Origin: Aequoribacter fuscus | Lineage (GTDB): Bacteria; Pseudomonadota; Gammaproteobacteria; Pseudomonadales; Halieaceae | Reading direction: 5' to 3' | DNA length: 64,000 nucleotides | Assembly (NCBI RefSeq): GCF_009910365.1 | Contig: NZ_CP036423.1 | Location: 1,860,001 to 1,924,000 of the forward strand | Shown here: positions 1,137-51,099 of the stretch, piece after piece | Layout of the letters: each line of letters opens with the position of its first letter | How positions within the stretch are numbered: the stretch's first letter is position 1 | Position numbers and translations under genes: made by a program | The notes under the pieces: generated by a model | What the model saw: the letters and a program-made list of their open reading frames with translations, nothing else | Told to the model about the DNA's origin: nothing | Database searches by the model: none

Positions 1137-2798
1137 TCACCGCATCCAGCCTGAACCGCGAATAGCTCGCCCAGGCCTAGCACCGGTATGCCTCCCCTCA
1201 AAAACAACAGGTTGCCCGTTAACCAGCACATGCTCCATACCGACCGAGTACTGGTGAGGTGTGCTGAACGTTGCCTTGTCTTCAATAGCGTCGGGGTCGA
1301 AAATAGCAATATCCGCAAAATAACCCAGTTTAATACGACCTCGCTCACGGATCCCCAAACTCTGTGCTGGCAGCAAAGTCAGTTTCCGAATGGCTTCTTC
1401 CATAGCCAGAACTTTTTCTTCGCGGACATACTTGCCCAGCAATCGGGCCACGTTGCCATACGTTCTTGGGTGGACGCCGCTATTCAGCGTCCTACCTTCT
1501 GCGGCGGGCGCCGTGGCATCAGAGCCAAACATTACCCAAGGTTGACGCATTTGCTTCTTAAGATTCTCTTCTGACATCAAATAATACGCCGTAGCGACCC
1601 GAGAACCATCTTCAAGAACCAAATCAATAATCGTATCACGAGGGTCCTGTCCGCGTTCCATGGCTACTTCAGCCAGTGTTTTGCCCACGTATTTGTGCAG
1701 TGCTTCGTTCTTAAACTCGAGAAATACCACTCCATCGGGCGTAGCGAGATAACCCAAGTTTTCCCATTCCTGCGTGTTCACACCCATCTCGTTTTTAACT
1801 CGCTCGCGAATTTTGGGATCTTTGAGACGCTCAGCCCATTTTCTATAGCCACCGGCCTGCACCCAGGTTGGCATTGCTGCTTCCAGACCACTGCCGCCCG
1901 CGACATAGGTATACATATCTGCCGTAACGGGAACACCTTCGCGGCGCGAAGCTTCGATTTTTTCGATAGCTAAATCCATCTTGTGCCAATTCGGCTTTCC
2001 AGCTGCCTTTAAATGGTGGATTCTTACCGGCAGCTTAGCCTCTCGGCCGATGCGCAAGGTCTCGTCAACGGATTCGATAAGCCGATTACTCTCAGAACGA
2101 ATGTGCGCTGTATAAACACCACCGTAGCGACTAACGACTTTTGCAAGTTCGATGAGCTCTTGAGTCTCAGCGTAGGTGGCCGGCGCGTATATCAAAAACG
2201 TGGTAAGACCCAGTGCTCCATCCTCCATTGCCTGAGCCACCTGCAGCTTCATTTTATCAAGCTGCTCTGGGGTTGGATCGACGTCATCCGTACCGATAAT
2301 GTTCATTCGCACGGTGGCTGCTGATACAAAGGTGGCGAAGTTTACCGAGACACCGCCTGCTTCAACGGTTCGAAGGTAATCGTCGACTGTAGTCCACGTC
2401 ATATCAACTTTCTCTTTAGAGAAATACGACCAAAAGGCCGCAGACGTTGTTGTTAAGGGGCTGAACGAAATCTCGCTAAGGACCTCAAAAGTCACGCCCT
2501 GCATTACATCGCTCATCGCTCTACCATCACTGATTAAGGATAAGTGCGAATGACTCAGCATATTGAAAAAGCCGGGGGCAACCGCAAGACCCGTAGCATC
2601 AATTTCAAGAGTGGCGGAGCCAGAGGGAATTTGCCCGATAGCGCTTATGCGATCTTCACGAATTCCCAGGTCTGCAATGTAGGGTGCTGCACCAGTTCCA
2701 TCATAAACACTGCCATTGCGGATGATGACATCGAACTCAACCGCTGCCGCAGTGGTGGCAATCACGCTCAAAACAACGACAATAACTATTCTCAGCAT
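1137..2798 (-). CDS. D-aminoacylase-type amidohydrolase, exported
   Basis: A 553-residue amidohydrolase-superfamily protein related to N-acyl-D-amino-acid deacylases. A hydrophobic signal peptide covers residues 1-19. The family landmarks are present: the beta-strand plus PGF element at about 75-78, an HSH metal-site motif at 83-85, HIRSE and HHLK further in, and a GSDAT...HPRTYG stretch near the C terminus that carries the catalytic Asp and the substrate loop of D-aminoacylases. The first metal motif reads NMLSHSHLS where typical members have D-x-H-x-H-x-D, so metal binding may differ. It is the last gene of the minus-strand run. Expected activity is removal of an acyl group from N-acyl-D-amino acids in the periplasm; the acyl chain and amino acid are unknown. 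Confidence 0.85.
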   Translation of the reverse strand: MLRIVIVVVLSVIATTAAAVEFDVIIRNGSVYDGTGAAPYIADLGIREDRISAIGQIPSGSATLEIDATGLAVAPGFFNMLSHSHLSLISDGRAMSDVMQGVTFEVLSEISFSPLTTTSAAFWSYFSKEKVDMTWTTVDDYLRTVEAGGVSVNFATFVSAATVRMNIIGTDDVDPTPEQLDKMKLQVAQAMEDGALGLTTFLIYAPATYAETQELIELAKVVSRYGGVYTAHIRSESNRLIESVDETLRIGREAKLPVRIHHLKAAGKPNWHKMDLAIEKIEASRREGVPVTADMYTYVAGGSGLEAAMPTWVQAGGYRKWAERLKDPKIRERVKNEMGVNTQEWENLGYLATPDGVVFLEFKNEALHKYVGKTLAEVAMERGQDPRDTIIDLVLEDGSRVATAYYLMSEENLKKQMRQPWVMFGSDATAPAAEGRTLNSGVHPRTYGNVARLLGKYVREEKVLAMEEAIRKLTLLPAQSLGIRERGRIKLGYFADIAIFDPDAIEDKATFSTPHQYSVGMEHVLVNGQPVVFEGRHTGARPGRAIRGSGWMR

Positions 2799-2870
2799 AG
2801 CGGTACTCCCAGTCTACATCATTGATTTATCGCTGTGCGTTCTTGACCTAGTAATCCGCATTGCAAAACC

Positions 2871-2888
2871 TTTTAGGTGCTCCTAAAA
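2871..2888. terminator. short hairpin between two hydrolase genes
   Basis: TTTTAGG and CCTAAAA form a 7-bp stem around a 4-base loop just downstream of the serine hydrolase that ends at 2892. It is A/T-rich and no uninterrupted T run follows on the minus strand, so it may only attenuate or stabilise the message. Confidence 0.3.
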
Positions 2889-2891
2889 AAC

Positions 2892-4832
2892 CTAGCTAAA
2901 GTAATTAAAACCCAAGAGATTCCAGTAGCTATAAAACCAGACCATGTATAGCCCCGCTAGATTGACTACGATTAGCTTGGCAAGCGCCCTAGGGCCTTCA
3001 AGTTCGCCATGTCGCAGGACCTGAAACGTGCAATAAATATGGTAAAGGGTCAACAAAGCAGCCAATATTGGAAAAATCAGAGCAATTTTCAAGGTAAGCG
3101 GAACATCATACATAAGGGCTATAAGACCGCCGCTGGCGCCTACTGCCGCAAAAGTAAGGAATGAAAAGTGTGTCGCAGCCAAGAGAGTTGAAGCCACCAC
3201 TGCTTTTCTTTCGAACGCTACAAGCGTATTAAATTCACGCCTTCGATACACCGCTTGCAACAAAACATGCATAAAAACCAAAAGCACCGAGCCAAGCGAG
3301 AGCATTATGAATCGACCTGTTTCGTAAAACGGTGCTCGATAAAACTGCATGACGCCAAAACCATCGATGACGAGACCCGTTATCTTGCCATTTACGTCTT
3401 CTTGAAAGGCGATTCGACCATTATCGTCCGCTTCCTGAAATAAGTTAGTGTCGATTTCAACGTATCGCTTACCTCCAATCATCAGCGTGTTATCGGGCAA
3501 TAAAACCACCTTCAAACTTGTGATAAGACGAAGCAACGACTCGATCTTAGTGAAGCTCGAGCGCCAGCTATGGTAGGTGCCCTCGTAGCGCTTACCCCGC
3601 TCGAAAAAATCAGCAGGTGGATCGACCTTCGATGCTTCGCTCGGGAAAAACTCATCGTAAAACGATTTAACAAACGTACTGTGTACCTCTTTAGCACCCG
3701 GGCCGCCAAAAGAAGAGAACAGCATAAAGTTTTCTTTAGACGACAAACCCAAATGGGAACTGAATATGGTGGTACCACCATCGTGGCCGAAAACGTCTAG
3801 ATCATCTCGCCCATATCTGCGTTTGAGAAATCCAAGGCCCATTCCCCGAACTCGCGGGTCATGCGTAAAGCCGCCATCCACCATTTGCTGCAGCGTTGAT
3901 GATTTTAAAATTCGCTTTCCATCAACAGCGCCCCCATTCAGTAAAGCTTGCGCGAAAATCGACATGTCACGCGCAGACACGGCTGCCGCGCCAGCCGGTC
4001 CAAAGTTAGAGATGATCTCGTAATTTAGCTCGACATAACGTCCTTGTGAATAGCCGTAAGCCTTGGCCACGTTCGAGGCGAGTTGCGGTGGAAGGGGCTC
4101 CAAAAAACTGGAATGAGTCATGCCCAAAGTATCAAAAATGTGGCGCTGGACATAATCATTAAATGACATCCCGGATACTTCCTCAACAACCAAACCGGCC
4201 AATGCGGTAGCCCAGTTTGAATAGGCTGTATGCACCCCGGGCGGATTAATGCGCTGCGGTTGATATTTAGCTAACGATTGTTCGAGCGGCATAATACGGC
4301 TAGGGTCATCTATAATCAGATATCCGAGGAATCCGTCTTCAAATCCTGCGGTATGAGTCATAATATGACGCAGCGTAACCGGCTGCCCAGGCCACGTATT
4401 CGCAACTTTCAAAGACTTAAGATACCCATTAACGTCGACATCTAAATCCACGTTACCTTGTTCTACTTGCTGCATGACCGCAACCCAAGTGAACAGTTTA
4501 GAAATGGAGCCTGGGCGGAAAAGTGTCGTGTTTGGATCAACAGGAATACGTTTTTCTACATCAAGAAAACCATAGCCCTTGGAGAAAATCATCTCACCAT
4601 CTTTCATGACAGCTACGACACCGGCAGAGCTCTTGGCGTTCTTCATGCTTGCTTTAACGACACCATCCACGAACGCCTCAACCACATCGGAATTCGCGAC
4701 ATTCGGAGGGATCGAGGCATAACTTCCGTCATTCCCCATCAAAAAAGCAAGGAATACTAGCCCAAGTTGCTTTGAACCGATCTTCAACTTATCAATCATC
4801 ATATGTGTCTCTAAAAATTCGGTAATTACCAT
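2892..4832 (-). CDS. membrane-anchored beta-lactamase-family serine hydrolase
   Basis: A 646-residue protein with a class C beta-lactamase/DD-peptidase-like domain in the first 400 residues and four predicted membrane helices after about residue 495. Ser109-Ile-Ser-Lys112 is the nucleophile SxxK motif, and YSNW supplies the Tyr-x-Asn element. An HDGG motif stands for the third conserved box. The start is uncertain: Met1 at 4832 gives a ten-residue tail, while Met11 or Met12 (4802/4799) places a signal peptide (about residues 20-40) at the N terminus and looks more natural. The catalytic domain would face the periplasm. Members cleave D-amino-acid peptides, esters or amides. Its position between two D-aminoacylase-type genes suggests a peptide or amide substrate with a D-residue (inference). 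Confidence 0.85.
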   Translation of the reverse strand: MVITEFLETHMMIDKLKIGSKQLGLVFLAFLMGNDGSYASIPPNVANSDVVEAFVDGVVKASMKNAKSSAGVVAVMKDGEMIFSKGYGFLDVEKRIPVDPNTTLFRPGSISKLFTWVAVMQQVEQGNVDLDVDVNGYLKSLKVANTWPGQPVTLRHIMTHTAGFEDGFLGYLIIDDPSRIMPLEQSLAKYQPQRINPPGVHTAYSNWATALAGLVVEEVSGMSFNDYVQRHIFDTLGMTHSSFLEPLPPQLASNVAKAYGYSQGRYVELNYEIISNFGPAGAAAVSARDMSIFAQALLNGGAVDGKRILKSSTLQQMVDGGFTHDPRVRGMGLGFLKRRYGRDDLDVFGHDGGTTIFSSHLGLSSKENFMLFSSFGGPGAKEVHSTFVKSFYDEFFPSEASKVDPPADFFERGKRYEGTYHSWRSSFTKIESLLRLITSLKVVLLPDNTLMIGGKRYVEIDTNLFQEADDNGRIAFQEDVNGKITGLVIDGFGVMQFYRAPFYETGRFIMLSLGSVLLVFMHVLLQAVYRRREFNTLVAFERKAVVASTLLAATHFSFLTFAAVGASGGLIALMYDVPLTLKIALIFPILAALLTLYHIYCTFQVLRHGELEGPRALAKLIVVNLAGLYMVWFYSYWNLLGFNYFS

Positions 4833-5094
4833 GAATAACCCCGAGGTCTGGCATTTTTCAATCTTGTATTGCCCATCGGGTCAGGTTGCACGTAACCTAA
4901 GTATCTACCCCTAGGGCGACGCCATCTCCTAGACAGGCGGCACGGCCACAACCTTTTGCGCCTGACGAGCTGCGCTCGCTGCACTCGAGTCAGCGCCCCG
5001 TGAGACGAACGTTCACTGAGACCTCTGCATTAATCGTTGCAGCATTTCACGGCCACGCGAGCGCCAGCCACGAGTGCTTACCCTGTAAACTAAC

Positions 5095-6762
5095 TCAATG
5101 CGCTCGCGGATCAGAAAAGTGCTCGTCCTGAAATTCAATAGGGAGCGACATGGTGGTATTGTCATCCAGCCACTTACTCCACTCCACACGCTCAAAGCGG
5201 CCCTCAGCCGACACTGGAAAACGAATCGGTTGTCCAGGTTTTACGGGCTGCACAACTGAATCGCGGACCACAACAGTACCGTTAACAATGACCCAAGGAA
5301 TACCCGCTGAGGGCAGCCCATTCTCGCCGGATTTGTAGGTTGCCCTAGGGCCAACAGTCGCAGGGTCAAACAACGTCAGATCGGCAATTTTGCCGACCTG
5401 AACACGACCGCGCTCCTGCATCGAGACCAAGCCCATATCACCCAAGTGTTTCGCATTCCAGTAGCTTAACTGGGCTAAGGTGAACATTAGAGGGATATCT
5501 TGCTCGCGCGCTAGTTTTAAGGTGGTTGAAAAAGTCGACACTGTGCGCGGATGCCCTGCGTATTCACTGGGATCGGCATCGTAGGGCAACAGATCTCCGT
5601 TCTTATCGAATCCCATCATTGCATCAGATGCGACCACCATCTCAGGTATGCTCAACCAATATTTCATCCAATCTTTTCGCGCCGGCATAAAAACCACAAT
5701 CACGCGCGCAGGGTCTTTCTCAACAGCCTCGAGATACTCTGCCTTGCTCAGGAATTTATCTAGGCCGGGATCATAGAGAGTCTCTGAGTACTGATAACCA
5801 TTAACCTCTTCCCACATAGAAGGCTTGAGAAAATCGGCGCTAATAAACGTGGATCCTGCTTCAAACGGGTAATATTCGCCCCAAACGTTGTAACCCTTTG
5901 CTCGAGCAAGCCTTAACTTTTCTTGATTCTCCCACCAACCGTAATCGTTGTCGTGGGCCAGCAATAAAGGTGCATCCAACAGCATTGCATTTAGTAACAC
6001 CTCATCAAGGGCGATGGGCGCTTCTGTCGGAGTCTTGGCGTTAAGATGATACCGAGTGTGCACCGAAGCAAGCCTGCCGTAACGCGCCGCAGTTCTCTGT
6101 ATTTCAAACAACTCATAACTCGTCATGCCACGCTGCATATAAGCGGCACCCACTCCAACACCCAATGCTCCCTGCCGCAGGTCCTCGTCAATCAGTTGTA
6201 TTATTTGATTCAGCTCAGACAAATTACTACGTTTCATTGACCAGCCCGGCGTACCATCTATCGCTGCCTGATCGAGAACTGTGCCAAGCGTCGATGCATC
6301 AACAGACTGGTCAATGACCACCTCTGGATCGTGCACCAGTAATCGGGTGACACCAACGCTCGACGTCGTACCATAATTAACCTGCCAACCAGTTGCTTCT
6401 TTATTTTTATACCATTCGCCAACACGGCTCGCTCCAGCTTCCAGATCCATACCGGTGGTAATGCCGTCGCGCACAGCGAGTTTTGTCGCAAAAGGGTCTA
6501 CGGAGTGAAAATGGGTATCAATAAATCCCGGAGCAACAACCAAACCGGTCGCATCGATAACTTCCTTGCCTGCCAGGGGCTCTTGAGAAATTGCAGCTAT
6601 CCTACCGTCGTTAATGCCGACGTTTGCGACACCATCGTACATGGTCTCGGGGTCCATCACCCGACCATTCGCAATAACGAGATCGTACTCTTCTGCGTTT
6701 GACGCGCCCGAAGCAAATAAAGCAGCTAGCAGTATGTACAAGATTTTTTTGATGGGTGTCAT
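5095..6762 (-). CDS. D-aminoacylase-type amidohydrolase, exported (second copy)
   Basis: A 555-residue amidohydrolase with a signal peptide ending near residue 23 (SNA|EE). Unlike the 1137-2798 protein it keeps the textbook metal motif DTHFHSVD, with His84, His86 and Asp89. HTRYH and AHDND further in match other metal-ligand positions. The C-terminal part (KIADLTLFDP, then a VIVNGTVVV strand) is the small beta domain that closes the family fold. It is far diverged from the other amidohydrolase, so it is not a recent duplicate. The gene lies 71 bases downstream of the class A beta-lactamase-like gene, consistent with one transcript. Expected role is periplasmic hydrolysis of an N-acyl amino acid, dipeptide or cyclic amide. 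Confidence 0.87.
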   Translation of the reverse strand: MTPIKKILYILLAALFASGASNAEEYDLVIANGRVMDPETMYDGVANVGINDGRIAAISQEPLAGKEVIDATGLVVAPGFIDTHFHSVDPFATKLAVRDGITTGMDLEAGASRVGEWYKNKEATGWQVNYGTTSSVGVTRLLVHDPEVVIDQSVDASTLGTVLDQAAIDGTPGWSMKRSNLSELNQIIQLIDEDLRQGALGVGVGAAYMQRGMTSYELFEIQRTAARYGRLASVHTRYHLNAKTPTEAPIALDEVLLNAMLLDAPLLLAHDNDYGWWENQEKLRLARAKGYNVWGEYYPFEAGSTFISADFLKPSMWEEVNGYQYSETLYDPGLDKFLSKAEYLEAVEKDPARVIVVFMPARKDWMKYWLSIPEMVVASDAMMGFDKNGDLLPYDADPSEYAGHPRTVSTFSTTLKLAREQDIPLMFTLAQLSYWNAKHLGDMGLVSMQERGRVQVGKIADLTLFDPATVGPRATYKSGENGLPSAGIPWVIVNGTVVVRDSVVQPVKPGQPIRFPVSAEGRFERVEWSKWLDDNTTMSLPIEFQDEHFSDPRAH

Positions 6763-6833
6763 GGGGTTATGTTCTCCACAAAAATAACTACTTCATAAAT
6801 TCAATGTTTATAACGGACGGATGTAATGACTCA

Positions 6834-7838
6834 TCAGAGAAACGAAAAATAGTCATACAAGGTTCTTGCCACTTCGGCTATTGCACGCTCGCGGTCGCTC
6901 GGCGGGCTTTGACTACCGCGGGTAAACACAGCAATCGCAAATACGCGTCCATTGGGCAGTGTGATGTACCCGACATCGTTAGCGACCCCTCCGACAGTAC
7001 CGGTTTTGTGTGCAATTGCCGTGTTCTTTGGAAGCAATGCGCTAAGACGTCTGGGCATCGTCACCGTTCGCATCATTGTATCCATCAACAACCGGGTGCT
7101 TTCATCGCTGAGCGCTCGTCCGCTGCTCAAGGTCGTCAACAAATTGAGCATCGCCCTAGGAGTAGATTTGTCTAGCGGATCTGCCTCAAACTCAGGGTTA
7201 GCCGCAATGGCTTTGTTGGGGTCAGCCGCAGCGATGCGCACTATTTTTCCTAGATTTTCTCGGCCCGGTTCGACGCCGTAAAAATCTCTCAGAAGATCAG
7301 CCGTAGAGCGATCGACGCGCATACCATCAATACCCAACTGCCCTAAATATTGATTAACGGCCGAGGGTCCGCCAGCAAGCCTCAAACAGATATCAGTGGC
7401 AGTGTTATCGCTCTGCGTAATCATTACCTCTAATAGGTTAGCAATGGACAGCGATACCCCTTGATGAATAAAATTTGCCGCAATGACTTGCGAATAGACC
7501 CATTCACTATCGTCAATATCGACCATATCTGTCAGGTTAAGTTCACCGTGATCAACTTTGGCTAGCAGAGTCATCGCTATGGCGATCTTGTACGTACTTG
7601 CCATCGGAAATGGCTCGTCTCCATTCAAAAATATCTGAGCGCCGGTGGTCATATCTTGGGCAGCAACTCCGGCAACACCAACCAAACCTGAGGTCACTGT
7701 ATGTAGTGCCAATGCGACTTTAGCGGGCGCTACCGCAGAGCCAACTTGCTGCGGCTGACTATTACCCTTTGCTGAGGCAAGCATAACAACCAAGGCCAAA
7801 CTTATTAACCAAAACCTTGTATTCACTCTCATGACCAT
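6834..7838 (-). CDS. class A beta-lactamase-like serine hydrolase lacking Glu166
   Basis: A 334-residue exported protein with a signal peptide in residues 8-28. Class A landmarks are clear: Ser81-Thr-Tyr-Lys84 (the S70xxK73 equivalent), Ser143-Asp-Asn145 (SDN) and Lys278-Thr-Gly280 (KTG). The omega-loop motif, normally R-x-E-x-x-L-N, reads DRSTADLL at 176-183, so the general base Glu166 is replaced by Thr. About 40 extra residues follow before the DKSTPRAM stretch. It is therefore probably not an efficient beta-lactamase; a peptidase, amidase or slow acyl-enzyme role is more likely. It sits between the YkvI-type protein and the canonical amidohydrolase with gaps of 61 and 71 bases. Confidence 0.87.
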   Translation of the reverse strand: MVMRVNTRFWLISLALVVMLASAKGNSQPQQVGSAVAPAKVALALHTVTSGLVGVAGVAAQDMTTGAQIFLNGDEPFPMASTYKIAIAMTLLAKVDHGELNLTDMVDIDDSEWVYSQVIAANFIHQGVSLSIANLLEVMITQSDNTATDICLRLAGGPSAVNQYLGQLGIDGMRVDRSTADLLRDFYGVEPGRENLGKIVRIAAADPNKAIAANPEFEADPLDKSTPRAMLNLLTTLSSGRALSDESTRLLMDTMMRTVTMPRRLSALLPKNTAIAHKTGTVGGVANDVGYITLPNGRVFAIAVFTRGSQSPPSDRERAIAEVARTLYDYFSFL

Positions 7839-7899
7839 TCACCACTATGGAAAGTTAAAACCCTGTAAGCCCGCGAGAAACAAACGTCTAAAGAAAAAC

Positions 7900-9021
7900 T
7901 CATCCTCTTTCCGGGCTTGCCTCTAACGATTGTGTAATACCAGACGATTTCACGATCTTCACAATACCTAAGGTGCAGATAGGAATTATGTATACCATCG
8001 CAAAACCCACTGATAGCGCGCTGTACCCGCTAGCCACGAGCGATACTATACCGAAGGTACCTAACAGACCGCCCACCCCTAGGGCGAATATTGCGATCAT
8101 GGCTCTCGGGAAGTGACCCAAAGACTCCCCCTCGTTTGGCTTCAGCACAACTTCAATACGTTCAATAAGACCCTGTACCAGACCAGCACCGGTTTCCACC
8201 AAGGTGCCGAGTAAAGCGAGCAAAAAAACGGCTAACAACAGCGGATTGGTGTACTCCGACATCATCCAATAATTAGGGACTGGCTTGTCCAGCACCTCGG
8301 GATAGCCGACAGCGTAGCTTAAGTGAAACAACGTGGCTGGGATCATTACCACAACGCCGGTAACCAAACCCGACATGGCCGCCTCTTTGCGTGAGGCGAT
8401 AGCACGAGTCGAAAACAATAGCACGGGGGCGATCGCTAAGTTGTACATCGCGTACAAAACACCGCCTTGAAGCCAACCGGGCTCAACGCCACTAGCACTA
8501 AACGCTTTCGACAGTATGACGCCATCATTGCTTATGACAGCCACAAAATAAGCGATAAACACCCCGTACATACCTATGGACCACCAAGTGAGTACCTTTT
8601 CTACCGCTTGTCTCCCAAAGTACACCAGCACAATGACTAAGCCCAAGACAGCGCCCATGCCAAATACACCAGAGATACCAAATTCCTGCTCAAGTAAAGT
8701 GCTAGCTGCTGAGCCTACAACCCCAAGCACCAGCAAAAACAACAGTAAATACAGAATTTCGAAGCATATCCAAAAAGGCCCAATGAGCTTACCGAAAAAA
8801 GAACGGTAGTCGTAAACCTGAAACACTCGAGCAAATTCGTAAGTACAGGCCAGAACAAGAGAAAAAAGACAGGCCGAGACCCCAATGCCAAACAAGCCCC
8901 CGAGCAAACCGTAGCGCGTGAAAAACTCGACAACTTCCCTACCTGTACCATAGCCGCCCCCCATTACTACCGAGATAAAGACTGCGGCGGGTACAACATA
9001 AACAGGCATCAGGCGTTTCAT
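7900..9021 (-). CDS. YkvI-type multi-pass membrane protein
   Basis: A 373-residue, very hydrophobic protein with about ten membrane helices. The N-terminal GGGYGTGREVVEFF stretch in the first helix is typical of the YkvI group, which resembles LeuT-fold amino-acid transporters but has no settled substrate. The frame can be extended to 9051, but the Met at 9021 has a GAGG ribosome-binding site eight bases upstream and starts directly at the first helix, so it was chosen. In this cluster the natural job would be to move the released amino acid or a small product across the inner membrane (inference from context only). Confidence 0.82.
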   Translation of the reverse strand: MKRLMPVYVVPAAVFISVVMGGGYGTGREVVEFFTRYGLLGGLFGIGVSACLFSLVLACTYEFARVFQVYDYRSFFGKLIGPFWICFEILYLLLFLLVLGVVGSAASTLLEQEFGISGVFGMGAVLGLVIVLVYFGRQAVEKVLTWWSIGMYGVFIAYFVAVISNDGVILSKAFSASGVEPGWLQGGVLYAMYNLAIAPVLLFSTRAIASRKEAAMSGLVTGVVVMIPATLFHLSYAVGYPEVLDKPVPNYWMMSEYTNPLLLAVFLLALLGTLVETGAGLVQGLIERIEVVLKPNEGESLGHFPRAMIAIFALGVGGLLGTFGIVSLVASGYSALSVGFAMVYIIPICTLGIVKIVKSSGITQSLEASPERG

Positions 9022-9136
9022 AGCGGCCTCGCAGAAAAATAGCAACAACATGCGTTGAGCACAGTGGCAAAAGACAATGTACCCAACGCGTTATCTACCC
9101 AGATCAAATAGTCGTTTGATGCAAAAACATAAACGT

Positions 9137-11371
9137 TTACTGACCCAAGTTATACTTCACTTCGACCCCGAATAAACGTGGCATACCCCAAATATTGCGC
9201 TCAACCGCTGTCAGCGCCGTCTGACTGTGATTCACAATGTACTCCTCGTCTGTAAGATTGCGAACCCAGGCTGAGACTTGCCATTGGTTATTCGTTGGGG
9301 TGTAACTCACGCGCGCATTCCACAAGTCATAGCTAGGCACTAACACAATATCCGTATTGGTATTGTTCGTGTACAGATCATCTTGATAGGTGTAATCAAG
9401 ATTAAAAATAAGCTCACCGGCACTGCCAACTGGCTGAGCATATTGAAGTCCCGCATACAATTTAGTTTTCGGCGCGTAATTCAAATCATTGCCATTAAAA
9501 TCCTTGGGCTGAGTTGGGTCTACGGCAGATATGGGGTTTTCAAATTTATCGTAGGTCGCATCCAAATACGTGGCGTTAACGGTCAGCTGCAGGCTATCCG
9601 AGGGCAACCAAACGGTTTCCAACTCTACGCCCTGACTGGTCGCCTCACCAGCGTTAGACACAATCTGCACGTTTGTATTGCCAACCGGTACTGATTGGAA
9701 TAACTGAAAGTCAGAGAATTTCTGAACAAACACATCGGCATTGACGCGAAGCTTGCCATCAGCTGACGTGGACTTCACACCCACTTCAAACGCATCGACA
9801 TACTCTGAATCAAACTGAATAGCAGGTAGGTAAGGGTTGAAATCGCCATTGAATCCACCGCTTTGATACCCTCGAGAATACTTCGCGTAGTACATAACGC
9901 TATCGTTTAGCTTGTAATTCAAGCCAATAGTAGGCGACACATGACTATCACTGTACTTATCTTGGTAGCTTAAGTTAAACGCGTTAAACAAAGCTCCCGG
10001 AGCCTGAGAAGCGAGGAAAGCGGCAGTCGCAGCAGGAAGTCCGAGTCCTACCTCTAACACGACCGCTCCGGTCGCTGGGTCGCTCGGCGCATTGACCTGG
10101 TTAAAATCAAAGTCTTTTTCCTCGTCGGTATAGCGCAATCCCGCGGTGAGCTCCCATTTGTCAGCGAAACGATAATTGCCTTGGACGTAGGCGGCGTAAC
10201 TCGTGACATCGACTACGCTAGGAATCGCGATAGTACCGCTGAGTGCTTGACTGGGTAGCACAGGGGCCCCAAACAGCAAATTTCTCCCTGTGGCGACAGA
10301 GCTCTCAAAATAGTAGAGGCCGGCGACCCAATCAAAGTCTTCGGACTCTGGCGATACAATACGAAATTCTTGCGAGAACTGGTCCGAATCTTCGTCAAAG
10401 GTGGTCTGAAATGCGTCAACAGCAGGGGTAAAGTCTTCGTCACCATACAGGTAATACTTATTCTCTCGATAGGCCGAAATTGACGACACTGTGTATCCGC
10501 TGTCCGTTGAGTAGTTGACCGTCAAGGCAGTACCCCAAAAATCCACCTCATCCAACTCATCATCTTTACCCGACTCAAAAGCAGGCCGCGCTGCGGTAGT
10601 AAAAACCGGAGCCTCATTCGAAGACTTACCCCAGTCTGCAGCAAAAACCATCTCTAATTGATCACTCGGAAGGAATCGCAATTGTGCGCGCGCACCTTCT
10701 TGCGCCCAGTCGCCGACCTCTTTACCGAGTACAACATTATTGAACAAGCCGTCACGTTCTTGTTTCGTGTAGGCAATCGATGCGAAGACGGTCTCGCTCA
10801 AAGGCCCACTTAAATAACCAGAACCCGTCCAGTAACCTTCGTTTCCAATACCGGCCTTGAGCTCTCCCATAAAGTCTTCGGATGCTTTCCTGGTGTTCAG
10901 GTTAATGGCGCCCGACACCGTATTTTTACCGAACAAGGTGCCCTGCGGCCCTCTCAGTATTTCAACGCTCTCCAGACCCAGCAGAGGCTGGTTCGCTGTG
11001 GAAGACCTACCTTGGTAAACACCATCAATATAAACCCCCATCCGAGCATCGATACCGATGTTTCGAGCGAAGTCTACTACGCCCCTCAAACCGCTCTGCG
11101 TATTACTACCTGGAATACCACCAACACTCAATGAAGGCGCGCTTGCGGCCAAATCAAAGAGTTCGGTTGCACCGAGTTTCTCGATCGACTCCGCTCCGAA
11201 GGCTTGAATACTGATCGGTACATCTTGGCTGCTCTCGCTCCGTTTTTGGGCGGTAACAATGACCTCCTCAAGCACAAACCCTTTAGCCGCCTGTTGTGCT
11301 ATCGCTGGCGACATCGTTGCCATTGCTAGTGCGGCCCCCCCAATATGAAGTGCTAATAGTGTCTTACGCAT
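9137..11371 (-). CDS. TonB-dependent outer-membrane receptor
   Basis: A receptor of 744 residues from the chosen Met. The signal peptide ends at AIA|QQ and is followed by the TonB box FVLEEVIVTAQKR. The plug domain contains the LRGPQGTLFGKNTVSGAINL motif region, and the rest is a beta-barrel rich in alternating aromatic residues and YxxGxK-type strands. An upstream Met at 11434 would add 21 lysine-rich residues; the Met at 11371 is preceded by GGGAG and begins the signal peptide, so it is preferred. The last residues are NLGQ rather than the usual terminal aromatic residue. It should import a scarce, bulky ligand with TonB energy. Neighbours suggest a peptide or N-acyl amino acid rather than iron. 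Confidence 0.93.
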   Translation of the reverse strand: MRKTLLALHIGGAALAMATMSPAIAQQAAKGFVLEEVIVTAQKRSESSQDVPISIQAFGAESIEKLGATELFDLAASAPSLSVGGIPGSNTQSGLRGVVDFARNIGIDARMGVYIDGVYQGRSSTANQPLLGLESVEILRGPQGTLFGKNTVSGAINLNTRKASEDFMGELKAGIGNEGYWTGSGYLSGPLSETVFASIAYTKQERDGLFNNVVLGKEVGDWAQEGARAQLRFLPSDQLEMVFAADWGKSSNEAPVFTTAARPAFESGKDDELDEVDFWGTALTVNYSTDSGYTVSSISAYRENKYYLYGDEDFTPAVDAFQTTFDEDSDQFSQEFRIVSPESEDFDWVAGLYYFESSVATGRNLLFGAPVLPSQALSGTIAIPSVVDVTSYAAYVQGNYRFADKWELTAGLRYTDEEKDFDFNQVNAPSDPATGAVVLEVGLGLPAATAAFLASQAPGALFNAFNLSYQDKYSDSHVSPTIGLNYKLNDSVMYYAKYSRGYQSGGFNGDFNPYLPAIQFDSEYVDAFEVGVKSTSADGKLRVNADVFVQKFSDFQLFQSVPVGNTNVQIVSNAGEATSQGVELETVWLPSDSLQLTVNATYLDATYDKFENPISAVDPTQPKDFNGNDLNYAPKTKLYAGLQYAQPVGSAGELIFNLDYTYQDDLYTNNTNTDIVLVPSYDLWNARVSYTPTNNQWQVSAWVRNLTDEEYIVNHSQTALTAVERNIWGMPRLFGVEVKYNLGQ

Positions 11372-11433
11372 AGTGATACTCCCGGCCGTAGCCTTTTTTG
11401 TGTTTTTATCTTGGTACTTTTTGTGTTTTGGCA

Positions 11434-12609
11434 TTAACTCGCCGCCGCTTCAAACAATCCACCTACCTCTTCTGATCTAGAGTTCAAACGGTCGGGAGCA
11501 ACAAAGTCTCGTTTAAAACCAGCCGCCTCTAAATCCGGGGGAACCTGATTTTTAGAAATCAGAGACGCTGCTAATCGAGCCGCTGCTGGTGCAATCTGGA
11601 TGCCATGCCCCCCTTGCCCTGCCAACCAAAAAAATCCCGCCACACGGGAATCGAAACCGATGACGGGCGTCCGGTCTCGGGCAAAGGTGCGCAAACCCGC
11701 CCAGCGATGGCGAACTTGCTTAACATGAAGATTTAGAGCCTTTTGTGCATAGTCAACCGCATACGCTATGTCTAACTCTTCTGGCTGAGCGTCACAGGCT
11801 AACGATGGATTTTCATCGGCCGGGGACGCCAAGATCAAGCCAGCATCAGGCTTGAGGTAAAAAGAACCGTCGACTGCCATAACGAGCGGCCAGGCAGACA
11901 CATCACAAGCGACTGGCGGGTCAAGCAACACTGCTGTGCGTCTCAAAGGCATAAGCCCAAGGCGATCCACACCGGCGAGCGCAGCTAATTCGTCAGCCCA
12001 CGCACCCGCTGCGTTGACGACGACAGGCGCCGAGTACCTAGCACTGTCGGTCGACACGGTCCAAACCCCATGATCTCGTGTTAACGCGCCGATCGTACAG
12101 TTACTCACCAACTGCCCACCCGCCTGCTTCAAAGCCTTTAAATATCCCAAGTGCAAGGCATGAACATCCATGTCAAACACATCGGGCTCAAACCATCCGG
12201 ATTTTGAATATTCGTCGTTAATAATCGGCACGTGTTGTCGAATGACCTCTCGGCCAACCTTGACAATATTCGGTATAACCACCTGCAGCTTTTCGAGCTC
12301 GGTTTCGACCGACACGGCGCAATCAGGCGGACACAAAGACAGCAATCCACGACGATGCAGCAGGGTCTCGACTTGAAAATCGGCTGGAGGCTCAGCCAAA
12401 AAATTCAAACTGCACTCAGTTAGAAACCGAAGGCTTGGGTTATCGAAGCCGTAAGACGGGATGTACGCCGCAGCGGATCGCCCCGTAGAGTGGTATCCGG
12501 GCTGCTTTTCTCGCTCAAGCACCAATACGCTGGCAGTCGGAGCCAATTCCGCCGCGACAGATGCGCCCGCCATTCCTGCGCCGATAACTATGACATCGAA
12601 CACGTCCAA
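11434..12609 (-). CDS. FAD-dependent amino-acid oxidase/dehydrogenase (DAO family)
   Basis: A 391-residue flavoprotein. The dinucleotide-binding motif VIVIGAGMAGAS occupies residues 7-18, the E/K-rich LVLEREKQPG stretch follows, and the C-terminal WLAGQGGHGIQIAPAAARLA element closes the FAD site as in DadA/SoxB-type enzymes. No signal peptide is visible, so it acts in the cytoplasm, perhaps at the membrane. The start codon is TTG, with GGAGAG upstream. It lies 149 bases downstream of RidA and 62 upstream of the receptor. Oxidation of a D- or N-substituted amino acid to an imino acid fits with RidA next door. The exact substrate, and whether electrons go to oxygen or a quinone, cannot be read from sequence. 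Confidence 0.88.
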   Translation of the reverse strand: MDVFDVIVIGAGMAGASVAAELAPTASVLVLEREKQPGYHSTGRSAAAYIPSYGFDNPSLRFLTECSLNFLAEPPADFQVETLLHRRGLLSLCPPDCAVSVETELEKLQVVIPNIVKVGREVIRQHVPIINDEYSKSGWFEPDVFDMDVHALHLGYLKALKQAGGQLVSNCTIGALTRDHGVWTVSTDSARYSAPVVVNAAGAWADELAALAGVDRLGLMPLRRTAVLLDPPVACDVSAWPLVMAVDGSFYLKPDAGLILASPADENPSLACDAQPEELDIAYAVDYAQKALNLHVKQVRHRWAGLRTFARDRTPVIGFDSRVAGFFWLAGQGGHGIQIAPAAARLAASLISKNQVPPDLEAAGFKRDFVAPDRLNSRSEEVGGLFEAAAS

Positions 12610-12659
12610 GAGCCCTACTCTCCGTTCAACTTAATTATGTGTTGGTTCTAACCGTAACA

Positions 12660-12715
12660 CGAAATTTCGATATCGAAAATATTTTATCGAAAAAATTTTT
12701 CGGTTACGAAAATTT
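12660..12715. promoter_or_regulatory. candidate operator/promoter with two A/T-rich palindromes
   Basis: Upstream of the oxidase gene lie a perfect 14-bp palindrome TTTCGATATCGAAA (12665-12678) and a second one CGAAAAA-A-TTTTTCG (12688-12702), followed by a TTACGAAAA half-site at about 12704-12712. All share a TCGAAAA core. Nothing similar was seen elsewhere in the cluster. The adjacent XRE-cupin regulator is the obvious candidate to bind them (inference). Confidence 0.5.
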
Positions 12716-12758
12716 AGGCCCAAAAAAAACCACCTAAGTTGCCTTCACAGTGCCATCA

Positions 12759-13154
12759 CTAAACCTCCTGATAGGTTGCGACAGCTTCAATTTCAACCCG
12801 TGCACCAGGCAACATAAGATCCGATCGAACAGTAGAGCGCGCTGGACGATGCCCGCCAAAAAACTCGATATACGCCGCATTAAATCCAGCAAAATCGTCT
12901 ATGTGTGTAAGCCAAACCGTAACTTTGACGACATGCTCATTCGACAAACCTTCAAGCTCAAGCAACTTCTGAATATTCGCGAGACAGAGTTGCGTTTGCT
13001 CTTTAATGTCACCAGTATTCAACCGAGCGTCGGCATCAAACGCCAACTGCCCTGAGGTAAACAAAAATCCGTTGGATCGGTAGGCAGCCGACAAGGGTGC
13101 CTTATCGCCACTCGGCAAGATAATCTCTTTCCCGACAGGTCTAGTCTCTTTCAT
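12759..13154 (-). CDS. RidA-family imine/enamine deaminase
   Basis: A 131-residue protein of the YjgF/YER057c/UK114 (RidA) family. It shows the SGQLAFDAD strand, the N-terminal LPSGDKAPLSAAYRSNGFLF segment, and the C-terminal RPARSTVRSDLMLPGARVEIEAVA stretch that carries the conserved Arg used to bind the carboxylate of imino acids. Length is normal. It overlaps the end of the XRE-cupin gene by 14 bases, so the two are probably translated from one message. RidA proteins hydrolyse reactive imines made by amino-acid oxidases and PLP enzymes, which matches the oxidase gene immediately downstream. Confidence 0.93.
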   Translation of the reverse strand: MKETRPVGKEIILPSGDKAPLSAAYRSNGFLFTSGQLAFDADARLNTGDIKEQTQLCLANIQKLLELEGLSNEHVVKVTVWLTHIDDFAGFNAAYIEFFGGHRPARSTVRSDLMLPGARVEIEAVATYQEV

Positions 13155-13809
13155 CTTTTTCCCTCTTCATTGGTCGAAACGTATCCGACACGTTTTGATA
13201 GCCCTCTAAGGACATACTAATTAATATCTCCGCAGGATTTGGCCCAACCGATACGTAATGATGACCCATCGAAGAGTCGAACAGGATGCTATCCCCCGCA
13301 TTCAACAACACAGGTTCGTACAATTCAGTATACAGCTCTAGTCCACCGCTCAAGACATACAGGAACTCTTGCCCTTGGTGGCGATGCCAGGGCAAAGAAT
13401 CATCAAAAGTGAACGAGTTTACGACACCCTTAAGATAGCCCTGCCGATGATTAGCGACTTCACTGCACAGCACCTCGTAATCGACATCGGTCGTGTTAAA
13501 CATAACCCCATGACCACCAATCGTAATTGCTCGACGGCCCATCATATGGCTACTCGGGTTGGTCAGATCAGTTACAGCAAGACCCAGCCCCGTCGCGAGT
13601 TTATTGACACTACTAAAATTGAGATCTGTCTTGCCGTGCTCCAGTTTCGACAACGTTCCTACCGAGATACCCGTTCTCTTCGAGACATCGGCGAGCGTCC
13701 AGTCCTGCTCCTTTCGAAGCTGTCGCAGGCGACGTCCGATAGGATTAGGAAGCCGGTCTGCCTCTTCGTTGGGCGGCTGTGCCTTCTGTTTTTTTACAAT
13801 ACTGACCAA
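13141..13809 (-). CDS. XRE-cupin transcriptional regulator
   Basis: A 222-residue regulator with an N-terminal XRE helix-turn-helix at about residues 25-80 (IGRRLRQLRKEQDWTLADVS, then GTLSKLEHGK) and a C-terminal cupin beta-barrel at about 130-215 (WHRHQGQEFLYVLSG, LNAGDSILFDSSMGHHY). Such regulators sense a small metabolite in the cupin pocket and often control amino-acid or amine catabolic genes beside them. The start is a TTG at 13809 with AGAGGA ten bases upstream; no ATG occurs before the DNA-binding domain. It heads the minus-strand catabolic run and is coupled to RidA by a 14-base overlap. Confidence 0.9.
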   Translation of the reverse strand: MVSIVKKQKAQPPNEEADRLPNPIGRRLRQLRKEQDWTLADVSKRTGISVGTLSKLEHGKTDLNFSSVNKLATGLGLAVTDLTNPSSHMMGRRAITIGGHGVMFNTTDVDYEVLCSEVANHRQGYLKGVVNSFTFDDSLPWHRHQGQEFLYVLSGGLELYTELYEPVLLNAGDSILFDSSMGHHYVSVGPNPAEILISMSLEGYQNVSDTFRPMKREKDERD

Positions 13810-14155
13810 AGAACTAATCCTCTAAAATCAAATTGACTGACGCCACCAACACCACACAATACACTCTTTTTTTCGACAACGAAACGTAGCGCTACACCCT
13901 AGACGCCGAGCTAGCGAAGAGCTTACCGAGAAATTGTAAGCACCTAAACCGCTCTACATCAATGTTGCAGTCTGCAAAGCACCGCTATGAATCCCCTAAA
14001 AGTGATAGACTCACACAGTACGAACCATTAGTGTTTTTACACTGCGACCAGAATCGGCGTTCCAAAGCGTTTGCTTTAGTTAGGGCACAGCAGAAAACCG
14101 GCACAAGTAACGTTTTTTGAACGACTCTAAAACGCCCCGAACATGAGAAAGCACA
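13810..14155. other. divergent intergenic region
   Basis: This 346-base gap separates the XRE-cupin gene (minus) from the serine hydrolase (plus) and must hold both promoters. A short A/T-rich part lies near 13850-13880. No RNA gene, repeat or convincing operator was recognised. Confidence 0.4.
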
Positions 14156-15445
14156 ATGACGAAAGCACCTGCGAAAACCAACATTTTTGGTGATACCAGC
14201 CCAGGTTTTGAATCCGTTCGGGACCTGTTTACAAAAAATATGAACCAATGGGAAGAAGAGCACGCCCAGCTTTGCGTGTATCACAGAGGTCAAAAAGTCG
14301 TCGATTTGTGGGGTTCAAAGGGCGACACCGGGCAGTTTACGCCAGACTCCCTGATCAACATCTTCAGCAGCGGCAAAAGCCTAGAAGCATTAGCAATTGC
14401 TCATCTAGCAGGCGCTGGGCAGTTAGACTACGACGCACCCATTGCTCGCTATTGGCCAGAATTCGCAGCTCAGGGCAAAGACGCAGTGACGGTTGCGGAT
14501 CTCATGCGCCACGAAGCGGGGCTGGCTAATTTTGACGTTTCACTTGAAACCGAAGACTTGCTCACGCATCGAATCAAAGAAAACGCGATCGGGAAGTATA
14601 TCGAAGAGCACTCACAACATTTCAAAGACCGAGCACGCACCGCAAGAGAATATCATGCGCTAACACGTGGCTGGATCGCTAACGAACTCTTCCGACGTGT
14701 GGACCCACAAGGCCGCACCATAGGCGAATTCGTACAACAGGAAATTAGCCAACCCCTGCAACTCGACCTAGCCATAGGCGTTACCGAAGAGCAGTATGAG
14801 CGTCGCGTACCGATAACCCCTCTTCATCCACTTAAACATTTGCTCGCGACCTTCCGCCCCAAACTATTTGGACGTCGCGTTTTGCATAACACCTTTCAGC
14901 TGTTCGCACGCTTGTTCATGCTGATTAAAACCCTGTTTAGAGGACCCTCGAAAAAATGGCCCACCCCCATTCAAGGAATGACCGGCATTGGTTTTTTTAA
15001 TGATAAGAATCTAGCGATGGGTGAAACGCCCTCGGCAAATACCAGCGCTTCGGCCCGGGCACTTGCAAAAGTGGCAGCAGGTATGGCTGCTGGCGGCATG
15101 TTCGAGGATCATACAATTCTGAGTAAAGAAGCCTGGGACCTACTGCACACCGACCCCGTACACGCCACCATGGGTGGCTTCCTTCCGTGCGCATTCACGC
15201 AAGGCGGTGTCGCACATTATGCCCTTTCTAGCTCTAATTCCAACTGGCTTCAGCGCGCCTTTAATCAAGGACGCGAAGGCTTTTACGGCTGGATGGGCTT
15301 GGGGGGCTCCCTATTCCAGTGGCACCCCCAGCATGAGATCGGCTTTGCATTTGTGCCCACGTCGCTCCACATGCTGGATTTAATGAACGAGCGCGGCAAG
15401 TGCTACCAGGAAGAAGTCCTGCGTTGCGTCAGCAACTTAAATTAG
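14156..15445 (+). CDS. serine hydrolase, EstB/class C beta-lactamase-like
   Basis: A 429-residue cytoplasmic-looking protein without a signal peptide. Ser71-Ser-Gly-Lys74 is the SxxK nucleophile motif, and the REYHALTRGW segment provides the Tyr of the second motif, in the form typical of EstB-like carboxylesterases rather than true beta-lactamases. The C-terminal GWMGLGGSLFQWHPQHEIGFAFVP stretch corresponds to the third box region. The upper-middle part (about residues 220-270) is an insertion common in this esterase group. Likely an ester or amide hydrolase of unknown substrate. It is divergent from the D-amino-acid-type cluster and 138 bases ahead of glutaryl-CoA dehydrogenase. Confidence 0.85.
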   Translation: MTKAPAKTNIFGDTSPGFESVRDLFTKNMNQWEEEHAQLCVYHRGQKVVDLWGSKGDTGQFTPDSLINIFSSGKSLEALAIAHLAGAGQLDYDAPIARYWPEFAAQGKDAVTVADLMRHEAGLANFDVSLETEDLLTHRIKENAIGKYIEEHSQHFKDRARTAREYHALTRGWIANELFRRVDPQGRTIGEFVQQEISQPLQLDLAIGVTEEQYERRVPITPLHPLKHLLATFRPKLFGRRVLHNTFQLFARLFMLIKTLFRGPSKKWPTPIQGMTGIGFFNDKNLAMGETPSANTSASARALAKVAAGMAAGGMFEDHTILSKEAWDLLHTDPVHATMGGFLPCAFTQGGVAHYALSSSNSNWLQRAFNQGREGFYGWMGLGGSLFQWHPQHEIGFAFVPTSLHMLDLMNERGKCYQEEVLRCVSNLN

Positions 15446-15583
15446 GTGCTTGACCCGAATACGTTTAAAACTCATGAACATTAAATCAGACAGCACATCG
15501 ACAGGCTCAGAGTACGATAAAATTACGTGCTAACCTAGCATACGACCCGTATCGGACCAGCACACCACAACACGGCGAACGTT

Positions 15584-16783
15584 ATGACGAATTCCACCAT
15601 TTCAAAAACACCTTGGACCACTTTCGATTGGCAAGATCCCTTCCTACTCGAGCAACAGCTAACCGATGAGCAGCGCCTAATACGGGACACCGCAAAGCAA
15701 TACGCGCAAGAGAAATTACTACCCCGTGTGACTCAGGCGTTTCGAGAAGAAAGCACGGACGCCAGCATTTTCAAAGAGATGGGTGCCTTGGGCCTATTGG
15801 GCTCGACGATCAAGGGCTACGGCTGTGCGGGTGTCGATTACATCAGCTACGGCCTGATCGCTCGTGAGGTCGAACGCGTCGATTCTGGATATCGCTCTAT
15901 GTTGAGCGTGCAGTCCTCGCTGGTGATGTATCCCATCTACGCTTTTGGCACGGAAGAGCAGCGCGAAAAGTACCTGCCCAAACTAGCGACCGGCGAGTGG
16001 ATTGGATGCTTCGGTCTAACTGAACCCGATTACGGCTCGGATCCGGGCGGCATGATCACTCGCGCTCGAAGTGTTGAGGGTGGCTATCGCTTGAGCGGCG
16101 CCAAAATGTGGATTAGCAACAGTCCTATTGCCGACGTCTTTGTCGTGTGGGCTAAAACCGATGACGGGCAAATTCGCGGATTTATTCTGGAAAAAGGTAT
16201 GCCAGGCCTCAGTGCTCCTAAGATTGAAGGGAAGCTTGCACTGCGGGCCTCCATCACGGGCGAGATCGTGATGGAGGATGTCTTCGTCAGCGAAGAGCAG
16301 TTACTGCCCAATGTTAAGGGGCTGAAAGGACCATTCAGCTGTTTGAATATGGCGCGCTATGGTATTGCTTGGGGAGCTTTGGGTGCAGCAGAAACCTGCT
16401 GGCAAACCGCACGAGCCTATACACTCGAACGCTCTCAGTTCGGTCGCCCACTGGCCGCGAATCAGCTGATTCAGCTCAAGCTCGCTGACATGCAAACCGA
16501 TATTGCTTTAGGCTTACAAGGCTGCTTTAGGGCTGGGCAGCAACTCTGTGATGACGGGATCGCACCAGAGCTCATATCCCTGATCAAACGCAACTCGTGC
16601 GCTAAAGCTTTACACATTGCTCGACAAGCGCGCGACATGCTGGGCGGTAATGGAATATCTGATCAATACCCGGTCATGCGCCATATGATGAACCTAGAAG
16701 TGGTGAACACTTACGAAGGCACCAGCGATATTCACGCTCTAATTCTAGGGCGTTCACAGACTGGCTTGGCCAGTTTTAGCTGA
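15584..16783 (+). CDS. gcdH: glutaryl-CoA dehydrogenase
   Basis: A 399-residue acyl-CoA dehydrogenase closely following the glutaryl-CoA dehydrogenase pattern. It has the [21 protein letters not shown] segment, the FAD-contact stretch [17 protein letters not shown], and the catalytic Glu378 inside [16 protein letters not shown]. The enzyme oxidatively decarboxylates glutaryl-CoA to crotonyl-CoA in lysine, tryptophan and other glutarate-producing pathways, passing electrons to ETF. The usual companions (a glutarate CoA-transferase and a LysR regulator) are not next to it here. The serine hydrolase upstream is on the same strand but has no obvious link. Confidence 0.93.
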
Positions 16784-47574: not shown

Positions 47575-47576
47575 GA

Positions 47577-50033: not shown

Positions 50034-50069
50034 CGGAACTTATTTAGGATTAATTTATGCAGGGGTCAT

Positions 50070-51044: not shown

Positions 51045-51099
51045 AGTTTATCCTTAAAAAACCATTAATTGGTACGAACCACTTCACTAGGTCGCCACG

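What the first reader, a model, noticed from the sequence alone, without database searches (positions are those of the whole stretch)
1137..13809. Nine-gene D-amino-acid or N-acyl-amino-acid uptake and breakdown cluster
Seen: an unbroken minus-strand run of XRE-cupin regulator, RidA, DAO oxidase, TonB receptor, YkvI-type membrane protein, Glu166-less class A hydrolase, D-aminoacylase, membrane-anchored SxxK hydrolase, D-aminoacylase. Known: D-aminoacylases release D-amino acids, DAO enzymes oxidise them to imines, RidA hydrolyses imines, and TonB receptors import large ligands. Inference: a complete route for scavenging a D-residue-containing acyl or peptide compound (peptidoglycan fragment, lipopeptide or beta-lactam-like product). 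I do not recognise this gene combination as a described locus.
Basis: partly seen in the sequence, partly recalled or inferred. Interest (0 to 1): 0.62.

Follow-up and report, generated by a model that had tools for sequence, protein, structure and literature searches.

The report
Marine D-amino-acid scavenging gene cluster
A set of nine neighbouring genes in a marine bacterium looks like a complete kit for taking up, freeing and burning mirror-image (D-) amino acids, with its own on/off switch sequence, and it points to a job for a widespread membrane protein family (YkvI) for which no function was found.

Summary
The nine minus-strand genes at 1137-13809 are real. The core (XRE-cupin regulator, RidA, DauA-type FAD dehydrogenase, TonB receptor, YkvI, Glu166-less class A hydrolase or S12 hydrolase, D-aminoacylase) is conserved in other Halieaceae, in a Porticoccaceae MAG and in other Pseudomonadales. 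I found a 14-bp operator candidate, TTTCG-N4-CGAAA. It lies before the regulator and, twice, before the dehydrogenase; three of the genome's seven copies are here. In regulator-bearing relatives all 13 strict copies sit at cluster genes, at remote D-aminoacylase arrays, or before a branched-chain 2-oxoacid dehydrogenase operon. The dehydrogenase is 41% identical to P. aeruginosa D-arginine dehydrogenase, but its guanidinium-binding Glu87 is Leu, so hydrophobic or branched-chain D-amino acids are the likelier substrate. YkvI, without Pfam or NCBIfam match, is predicted to have the LeuT/APC transporter fold and lies beside D-aminoacylases in 13 of 32 family genomes (0.4 expected); elsewhere it neighbours D-glutamate (DgcA/DgcN) or DadA genes. 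Best reading: a regulated D-amino-acid scavenging operon with YkvI as inner-membrane permease. A new variant of a known kind, notable mainly for YkvI and the regulon.

The parts
1137..2798 (-). DacA: secreted D-aminoacylase-like amidohydrolase lacking the alpha-site His-x-His; keeps the Glu in place of Cys96, and His220, His250, Asp366 equivalents
   Evidence: relatives beside YkvI in L087, L126, L137
2892..4832 (-). S12-type (PF00144) SxxK serine hydrolase with C-terminal membrane helices
   Evidence: 68% identical homologue directly downstream of YkvI in S. unica (L031/L068)
5095..6762 (-). DacB: secreted N-acyl-D-amino-acid deacylase family protein (NF006560, 341.2 vs cut-off 340), full metal ligand set with Glu for Cys96
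6834..7838 (-). ClsA: secreted class A beta-lactamase-fold serine hydrolase without conserved Glu166
7900..9051 (-). YkvI-type membrane protein, predicted LeuT/APC-fold transporter; likely start at 9021
   Evidence: linkage
9137..11434 (-). TonB-dependent receptor (signal-peptide start likely near 11371)
11434..12609 (-). DauA-type FAD D-amino-acid dehydrogenase, Glu87->Leu, Thr50->Ile, His48->Ala, Glu246->Gly; Arg222, Arg305, Tyr53, Tyr249 kept
12665..12678 (.). operator candidate TTTCGATATCGAAA upstream of DauA
12698..12711 (.). operator candidate TTTCGTAACCGAAA (minus-strand reading) upstream of DauA
12759..13154 (-). RidA/Rid-family imine deaminase
13141..13809 (-). XRE-cupin transcriptional regulator
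13871..13884 (.). operator candidate TTTCGTTGTCGAAA (minus-strand reading) upstream of the regulator

Best explanation
This is a self-regulated operon (or two linked ones) for scavenging D-amino acids that are locked in peptides or N-acyl conjugates, most likely hydrophobic or branched-chain D-amino acids such as D-Leu or D-Val. Inferred steps: the TonB receptor brings the compound into the periplasm; the secreted serine hydrolases (ClsA, S12 protein) and amidohydrolases (DacB, DacA) cut off acyl or peptidyl groups; YkvI carries the free D-amino acid across the inner membrane; the DauA-type flavoenzyme oxidises it to the imino acid; RidA speeds hydrolysis to the 2-oxo acid and ammonia; the 2-oxo acid enters ordinary catabolism. 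The XRE-cupin protein senses a pathway ligand and binds TTTCG-N4-CGAAA before its own gene (with ridA) and before dauA and the genes behind it. Shown by computation: the genes, their conserved linkage, the operator distribution, the active-site residues and the predicted YkvI fold. Not shown: any binding, transport or catalysis.
For: Genes and families. Conserved linkage: XRE-RidA-DauA-TonB-YkvI-ClsA/S12 in L067, L068, L073 (66-79% id), RidA-XRE-DauA-YkvI-ClsA-DacB-TonB in a Porticoccaceae MAG (L077/L197), RidA-DacB-XRE-DauA-YkvI in L135, L142, L199. In 390 order genomes every XRE-cupin hit of 55% identity or more (6) sits in this cluster; the 5 hits of 47% or less do not. Operator: 3 copies in the window (0.19 expected), 3 of 7 genomic copies here; in the 8 family genomes with the regulator 13 strict sites against 1.9 expected (P about 1e-7), all at cluster genes, D-aminoacylase arrays or a branched-chain 2-oxoacid dehydrogenase operon. 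Substrate: Glu87 to Leu/Met and Thr50 to Ile in all clusters of this type; in PaDADH Glu87 and Glu246 bind the guanidinium (PMC11193025). YkvI: LeuT-type fold, Z 24-28 to amino-acid and related transporters; beside D-aminoacylases in 13 of 32 genomes (0.4 expected), beside DgcA/DgcN and DadA. Rid proteins act on imines released by DauA in vitro (PMC5619798).
Against: No activity, expression or binding data. PaDADH is broad, so loss of Glu87 does not prove a branched-chain substrate. The branched-chain dehydrogenase link is seen in two related genomes only (the second with one mismatch), and no close relative of it was found in the window's genome. In the published test archetypal RidA did not act on iminoarginine, only Rid2/Rid3 did; the window's RidA falls below the TIGR00004 cut-off and its subfamily was not settled. 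DacA lacks half of the metal site. The order ClsA/S12/DacB varies among relatives, and no operator lies in the 262-bp gap before the S12 gene, so the two left-most genes may be expressed separately. The motif was first seen upstream of the regulator genes of the window and three relatives, so those copies are not independent.
Confidence: 0.8

Rival explanations
1. The cluster degrades oxidised chitin sugars: an ong-like pathway in which N-acetyl-D-glucosaminic acid (a D-amino acid in form) is deacetylated by the D-aminoacylase and deaminated with RidA.
For: Same logic of TonB receptor, D-aminoacylase, deaminase, RidA and regulator in marine gammaproteobacteria; OngB is among the solved relatives of both amidohydrolases.
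Against: No PLP deaminase, KDG kinase, GH20 hexosaminidase, SSS transporter or MurR/RpiR regulator among the nine genes; DacA scores higher against D-aminoacylase than against OngB; the two SxxK peptidase-fold hydrolases have no place in it.
Confidence: 0.05
2. A cell-wall recycling or peptidoglycan-scavenging cluster whose D-amino acid is D-Ala or D-Glu rather than a hydrophobic one.
For: SxxK hydrolases of penicillin-binding-protein type; YkvI paralogues sit with DgcA/DgcN D-glutamate genes and M19 dipeptidases; NF006560 has been annotated as D-glutamate deacylase (memory).
Against: PaDADH-type enzymes do not oxidise D-Glu or D-Asp (PMC11193025); the dehydrogenases of these clusters carry a hydrophobic pocket; the operator precedes a branched-chain 2-oxoacid dehydrogenase in two relatives.
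Confidence: 0.2
3. A detoxification cluster against a non-ribosomal lipopeptide or beta-lactam-like antibiotic: the hydrolases inactivate it and the rest removes the released D-residues.
For: Several secreted hydrolases of beta-lactamase or D-peptidase kind; TonB receptors can import such compounds (general knowledge).
Against: The class A protein lacks the deacylation Glu166, and the natural Glu166-less LRA-5 gives no resistance (PMC12777564); a complete catabolic half with regulator suggests nutrition.
Confidence: 0.07
4. The genes on the left (S12 hydrolase, DacA) are an unrelated neighbour and only XRE to DacB form the unit.
For: 262-bp gap without operator; these two are absent from several orthologous clusters.
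Against: A 68% homologue of the S12 protein follows YkvI directly in S. unica, and DacA relatives (48-71%) flank YkvI or its D-glutamate relatives in L087, L126, L137, L149.
Confidence: 0.3

Closest known systems
Pseudomonas aeruginosa dauBAR / D-arginine dehydrogenase DauA
   Same: FAD dehydrogenase 41% identical over 374 residues with the same carboxylate-binding residues; Rid proteins can process its imine
   Different: Guanidinium-binding Glu87 and Glu246 lost; no DauB; added TonB receptor, YkvI and secreted hydrolases; different regulator
ong cluster of marine chitin oxidation (PMC9537276)
   Same: TonB receptor + D-aminoacylase + deaminating enzyme + RidA + own repressor
   Different: PLP deaminase, sugar kinase, hexosaminidase and SSS transporter instead of FAD dehydrogenase, SxxK hydrolases and YkvI
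DgcN-DgcA D-glutamate pathway of marine bacteria
   Same: YkvI paralogues, D-aminoacylases, S12 hydrolases and TonB receptors in the same neighbourhoods; in G135 the two kinds of cluster are neighbours
   Different: N-acetylation and racemisation instead of oxidation; here no DgcN or DgcA
D-aminoacylase (1M7J) and N-acyl-D-glutamate deacylase (3GIP)
   Same: DacB and DacA belong to this amidohydrolase group
   Different: Glu replaces Cys96; DacA lacks the alpha-metal motif; both carry signal peptides (by eye)
LRA-5, a Glu166-less class A 'precursor' beta-lactamase
   Same: Fold (Z 35.7) and absence of Glu166
   Different: About 31% identity; long inserted loop in place of the omega loop; linked to D-amino-acid genes

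Membership tests
DauA D-arginine dehydrogenase | FAD DAO fold and closest solved relative DauA | tested here: met
   E 3e-84; 41% identity
DauA D-arginine dehydrogenase | carboxylate-binding Arg222, Arg305, Tyr53, Tyr249 | tested here: met
DauA D-arginine dehydrogenase | guanidinium-binding Glu87 (and Glu246) | tested here: not met
   Leu and Gly; role from PMC11193025
ong oxidised-chitin cluster | PLP deaminase OngC, KdgK kinase, OngA hexosaminidase, SSS transporter | tested here: not met
   none among the nine genes; definition from PMC9537276
N-acyl-D-amino-acid deacylase (DacB) | HxH, bridging residue, two His and catalytic Asp; NF006560 cut-off | tested here: met
   341.2 vs 340 bits, (Glu replaces Cys96)
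N-acyl-D-amino-acid deacylase (DacA) | alpha-site HxH | tested here: not met
   (Leu-Ser-His); 221 bits, below the NF006560 cut-off
Class A beta-lactamase (ClsA) | SxxK, SDN, KTG and fold | tested here: met
Class A beta-lactamase (ClsA) | general base Glu166 | tested here: not met
   no conserved Glu in the loop across seven homologues
Rid family | PF01042 fold | tested here: met
   (98 bits)
Archetypal RidA subfamily | TIGR00004 cut-off | tested here: not met
   93.4 vs 106.25 bits
LeuT/APC-superfamily transporter (YkvI) | LeuT fold with interrupted helices 1 and 6 | tested here: met
   AF2 pLDDT 92.7, (predicted structure)
LeuT/APC-superfamily transporter (YkvI) | transport of amino acids | not testable with these tools
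   only gene context and fold
XRE-cupin regulator | HTH_3 plus Cupin_2 | tested here: met
XRE-cupin regulator | binding of TTTCG-N4-CGAAA | not testable with these tools
   distribution only

The most novel reading that the evidence does not exclude
YkvI proteins, found across many phyla, are a family of D-amino-acid permeases, and this cluster is the first recognised regulon (XRE-cupin with operator TTTCG-N4-CGAAA) dedicated to D-branched-chain or other hydrophobic D-amino acids, which are regarded as refractory in the sea.
Probability: 0.4. Interest if true: 0.7.

Novelty: new variant of a known kind. Interest (0 to 1): 0.55.

Why it matters
[quoted passage not shown] A regulated cluster that links outer-membrane uptake, release, inner-membrane transport and oxidation would give a marker for this trait in marine genomes. 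It also gives the first concrete hypothesis I could find for YkvI: only 8 papers of the open library mention the name, none in title or abstract, and several of these are sporulation or transcriptome studies; none mentions COG3949, the COG I recall for it.

Tried and rejected
YkvI by sequence: no Pfam, NCBIfam or PDB relative; only the predicted structure placed it. Promoter and terminator scans no better than shuffles. A shared 9-mer upstream of the regulators (GCTTACCGA) has one further exact longer match, inside YkvI, and was dropped for the palindrome. The ong pathway was considered and set aside for missing enzymes. An alternative Glu166 in 'VEPGREN' of ClsA is not conserved in homologues. 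Of the four other TTTCG-N4-CGAAA sites in the genome, all with G or C in the centre, the three fetched do not neighbour cluster homologues; the fourth was not read. Gene families around YkvI in Aminicenantes and Gemmatimonadota gave mixed neighbours (GMP synthase, CocE/NonD peptidase), so the D-amino-acid link there is open. A close relative of the branched-chain dehydrogenase was not found in the window's genome.

Full report
OBSERVATION. The window lies in a complete 3.10-Mb genome. The host looks like Halieaceae, because the nearest named clusters are from Seongchinamella and Pseudohalioglobus and family members include Haliea and strain NOR5-3; the genome itself is unnamed. The nine ORFs are open, collinear and on the minus strand. 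The gene order from upstream is XRE-cupin, RidA, DauA-type dehydrogenase, TonB receptor, YkvI, ClsA, DacB, S12 hydrolase, DacA.

CONSERVED LINKAGE. YkvI was found in 32 of 140 family genomes. Neighbourhoods were read from genome loci and from 80 named loci. XRE, RidA, DauA, TonB receptor and YkvI, with ClsA or the S12 protein, are 66-79% identical and in the same order in L067, L068 and L073 (in L068 the DauA ORF was not picked by the script but is present in the matching locus L031). A Porticoccaceae MAG (L077) holds RidA-XRE-DauA-YkvI-ClsA-DacB-amidohydrolase-TonB at 45-58%, apart from the second amidohydrolase. Three further loci (L135, L142, L199) hold RidA-DacB-XRE-DauA-YkvI at 39-58%. 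In a sample of 390 order genomes all six XRE-cupin hits of 55% identity or more lie in such a cluster and the five hits of 47% or less do not. Within the family, however, two regulator-bearing genomes (G035, G051) show only regulator plus TonB receptor in the stretch read, in G051 up to a contig end. The cluster is patchy: only 8 of 140 family genomes carry the regulator, and none of the four same-genus genomes does, so it is an accessory trait.

OPERATOR. Aligning the regions before the regulator genes of the window and relatives showed TTTCGTTATCGAAA-like palindromes. TTTCG-N4-CGAAA occurs three times in the window against 0.19 expected, in none of 100 shuffles as often, and only seven times in the genome. 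Two copies, 33 bp apart, lie in the RidA-DauA gap and one before the regulator. Equivalent places, exact or with one mismatch, are occupied in L067, L068, L073, L077, L135, L142, L149, L152, L198 and L199. The strict form TTTCGWWWWCGAAA has 13 copies in the eight regulator-bearing family genomes against 1.9 expected from the other 132 (P about 1e-7). All 13 lie before cluster genes, before tandem D-aminoacylase arrays in G028 and G025 (37 bp upstream; arrays also hold ClsA and S12 homologues), or about 16 bp before the likely start codon of a branched-chain 2-oxoacid dehydrogenase operon in G025, with a one-mismatch copy in G028. The copies before the regulators used for discovery are not independent; the others are. 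That the XRE-cupin protein is the binder is inference from co-occurrence.

SUBSTRATE. The dehydrogenase is 41% identical to PaDADH. The residues that hold the alpha-carboxylate are kept; the two acidic residues that hold the guanidinium are Leu and Gly, and Thr50 is Ile; position 87 is Leu or Met in every cluster of this type, while position 246 is Glu in the L135/L142/L198/L199 group. [quoted passage not shown] With the branched-chain dehydrogenase under the motif in two relatives, hydrophobic or branched-chain D-amino acids are the best guess (my estimate about 0.55). Rid2 and Rid3 proteins, but not archetypal RidA, act on DauA-made iminoarginine (PMC5619798); the Rid subfamily here was not settled.

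YkvI. AlphaFold2 gives a confident model (pLDDT 92.7) with interrupted helices 1 and 6. It matches LeuT-fold transporters over its length (Z 24-28, rmsd 3.2-5.1 A), among them AgcS, AdiC, ApcT and LAT/Asc types, but also choline, nucleobase and metal transporters, so the fold alone does not give the substrate. Context does: a D-aminoacylase lies within 10 kb in 13 of 32 genomes against 0.4 expected, in 9 of 14 genera (counted); DgcN- and DgcA-like genes of D-glutamate catabolism adjoin many paralogues, and DadA adjoins one. The DgcN- and DgcA-like proteins fall just under their NCBIfam cut-offs (463 vs 480; 399.1 vs 400). In distant phyla the neighbours are mixed.

HYDROLASES. DacB keeps the metal-site positions with Glu for Cys96; DacA has lost the alpha-site His-x-His, as have its homologues, which fits a one-metal enzyme but is untested. 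ClsA has the class A fold (Z 37) and SxxK, SDN and KTG, but no conserved Glu166; LRA-5, a natural Glu166-less relative, gives no resistance (PMC12777564). The signal peptides of DacA, DacB and ClsA were judged by eye.

VERDICT. The combination is a new variant of D-amino-acid catabolic clusters, not a new kind of system.

Noticed in passing
L146 3499-15657 (G028:C17) and L176 2577-12308 (G025:C23): Tandem arrays of D-aminoacylases (five in G028) with ClsA and S12 homologues and the operator 37 bp upstream, about 20 kb from the main cluster: a second, remote hydrolase battery with the same motif.
   Followed up: partly
L155 8901 (G003:C20:133901): A same-genus genome without a detectable XRE-cupin orthologue keeps the operator 56 bp before a 68% identical DacB gene.
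   Followed up: no
L149 and L052 (G135:C11): XRE-RidA-DauA-TonB module directly beside a DacA/S12/TonB/DgcA/DgcN/YkvI/D-aminoacylase module: a D-amino-acid island with two routes.
   Followed up: partly
L038 about 9500-12900 (strain NOR5-3): YkvI-ClsA-DacB remain, next to a short TonB-receptor ORF and an IS1182 transposase; XRE, RidA and DauA were not seen, suggesting a decayed cluster.
   Followed up: no
L036, L037, L071, L072: A 70-71% identical YkvI subgroup sits instead with an Xaa-Pro-dipeptidase-like amidohydrolase (below its NCBIfam cut-off), so some YkvI may serve other amino acids.
   Followed up: no
window 44577-52841: Lower-GC MoxR-AAA / DUF58 / DUF4381 / vWA / TPR operon with an IS91-type transposase gene beside it.
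   Followed up: no
window 14156-16783: Divergent plus-strand serine hydrolase (LipL-like, below cut-off) and acyl-CoA dehydrogenase next to the regulator; not seen with the cluster in the relatives read.
   Followed up: partly
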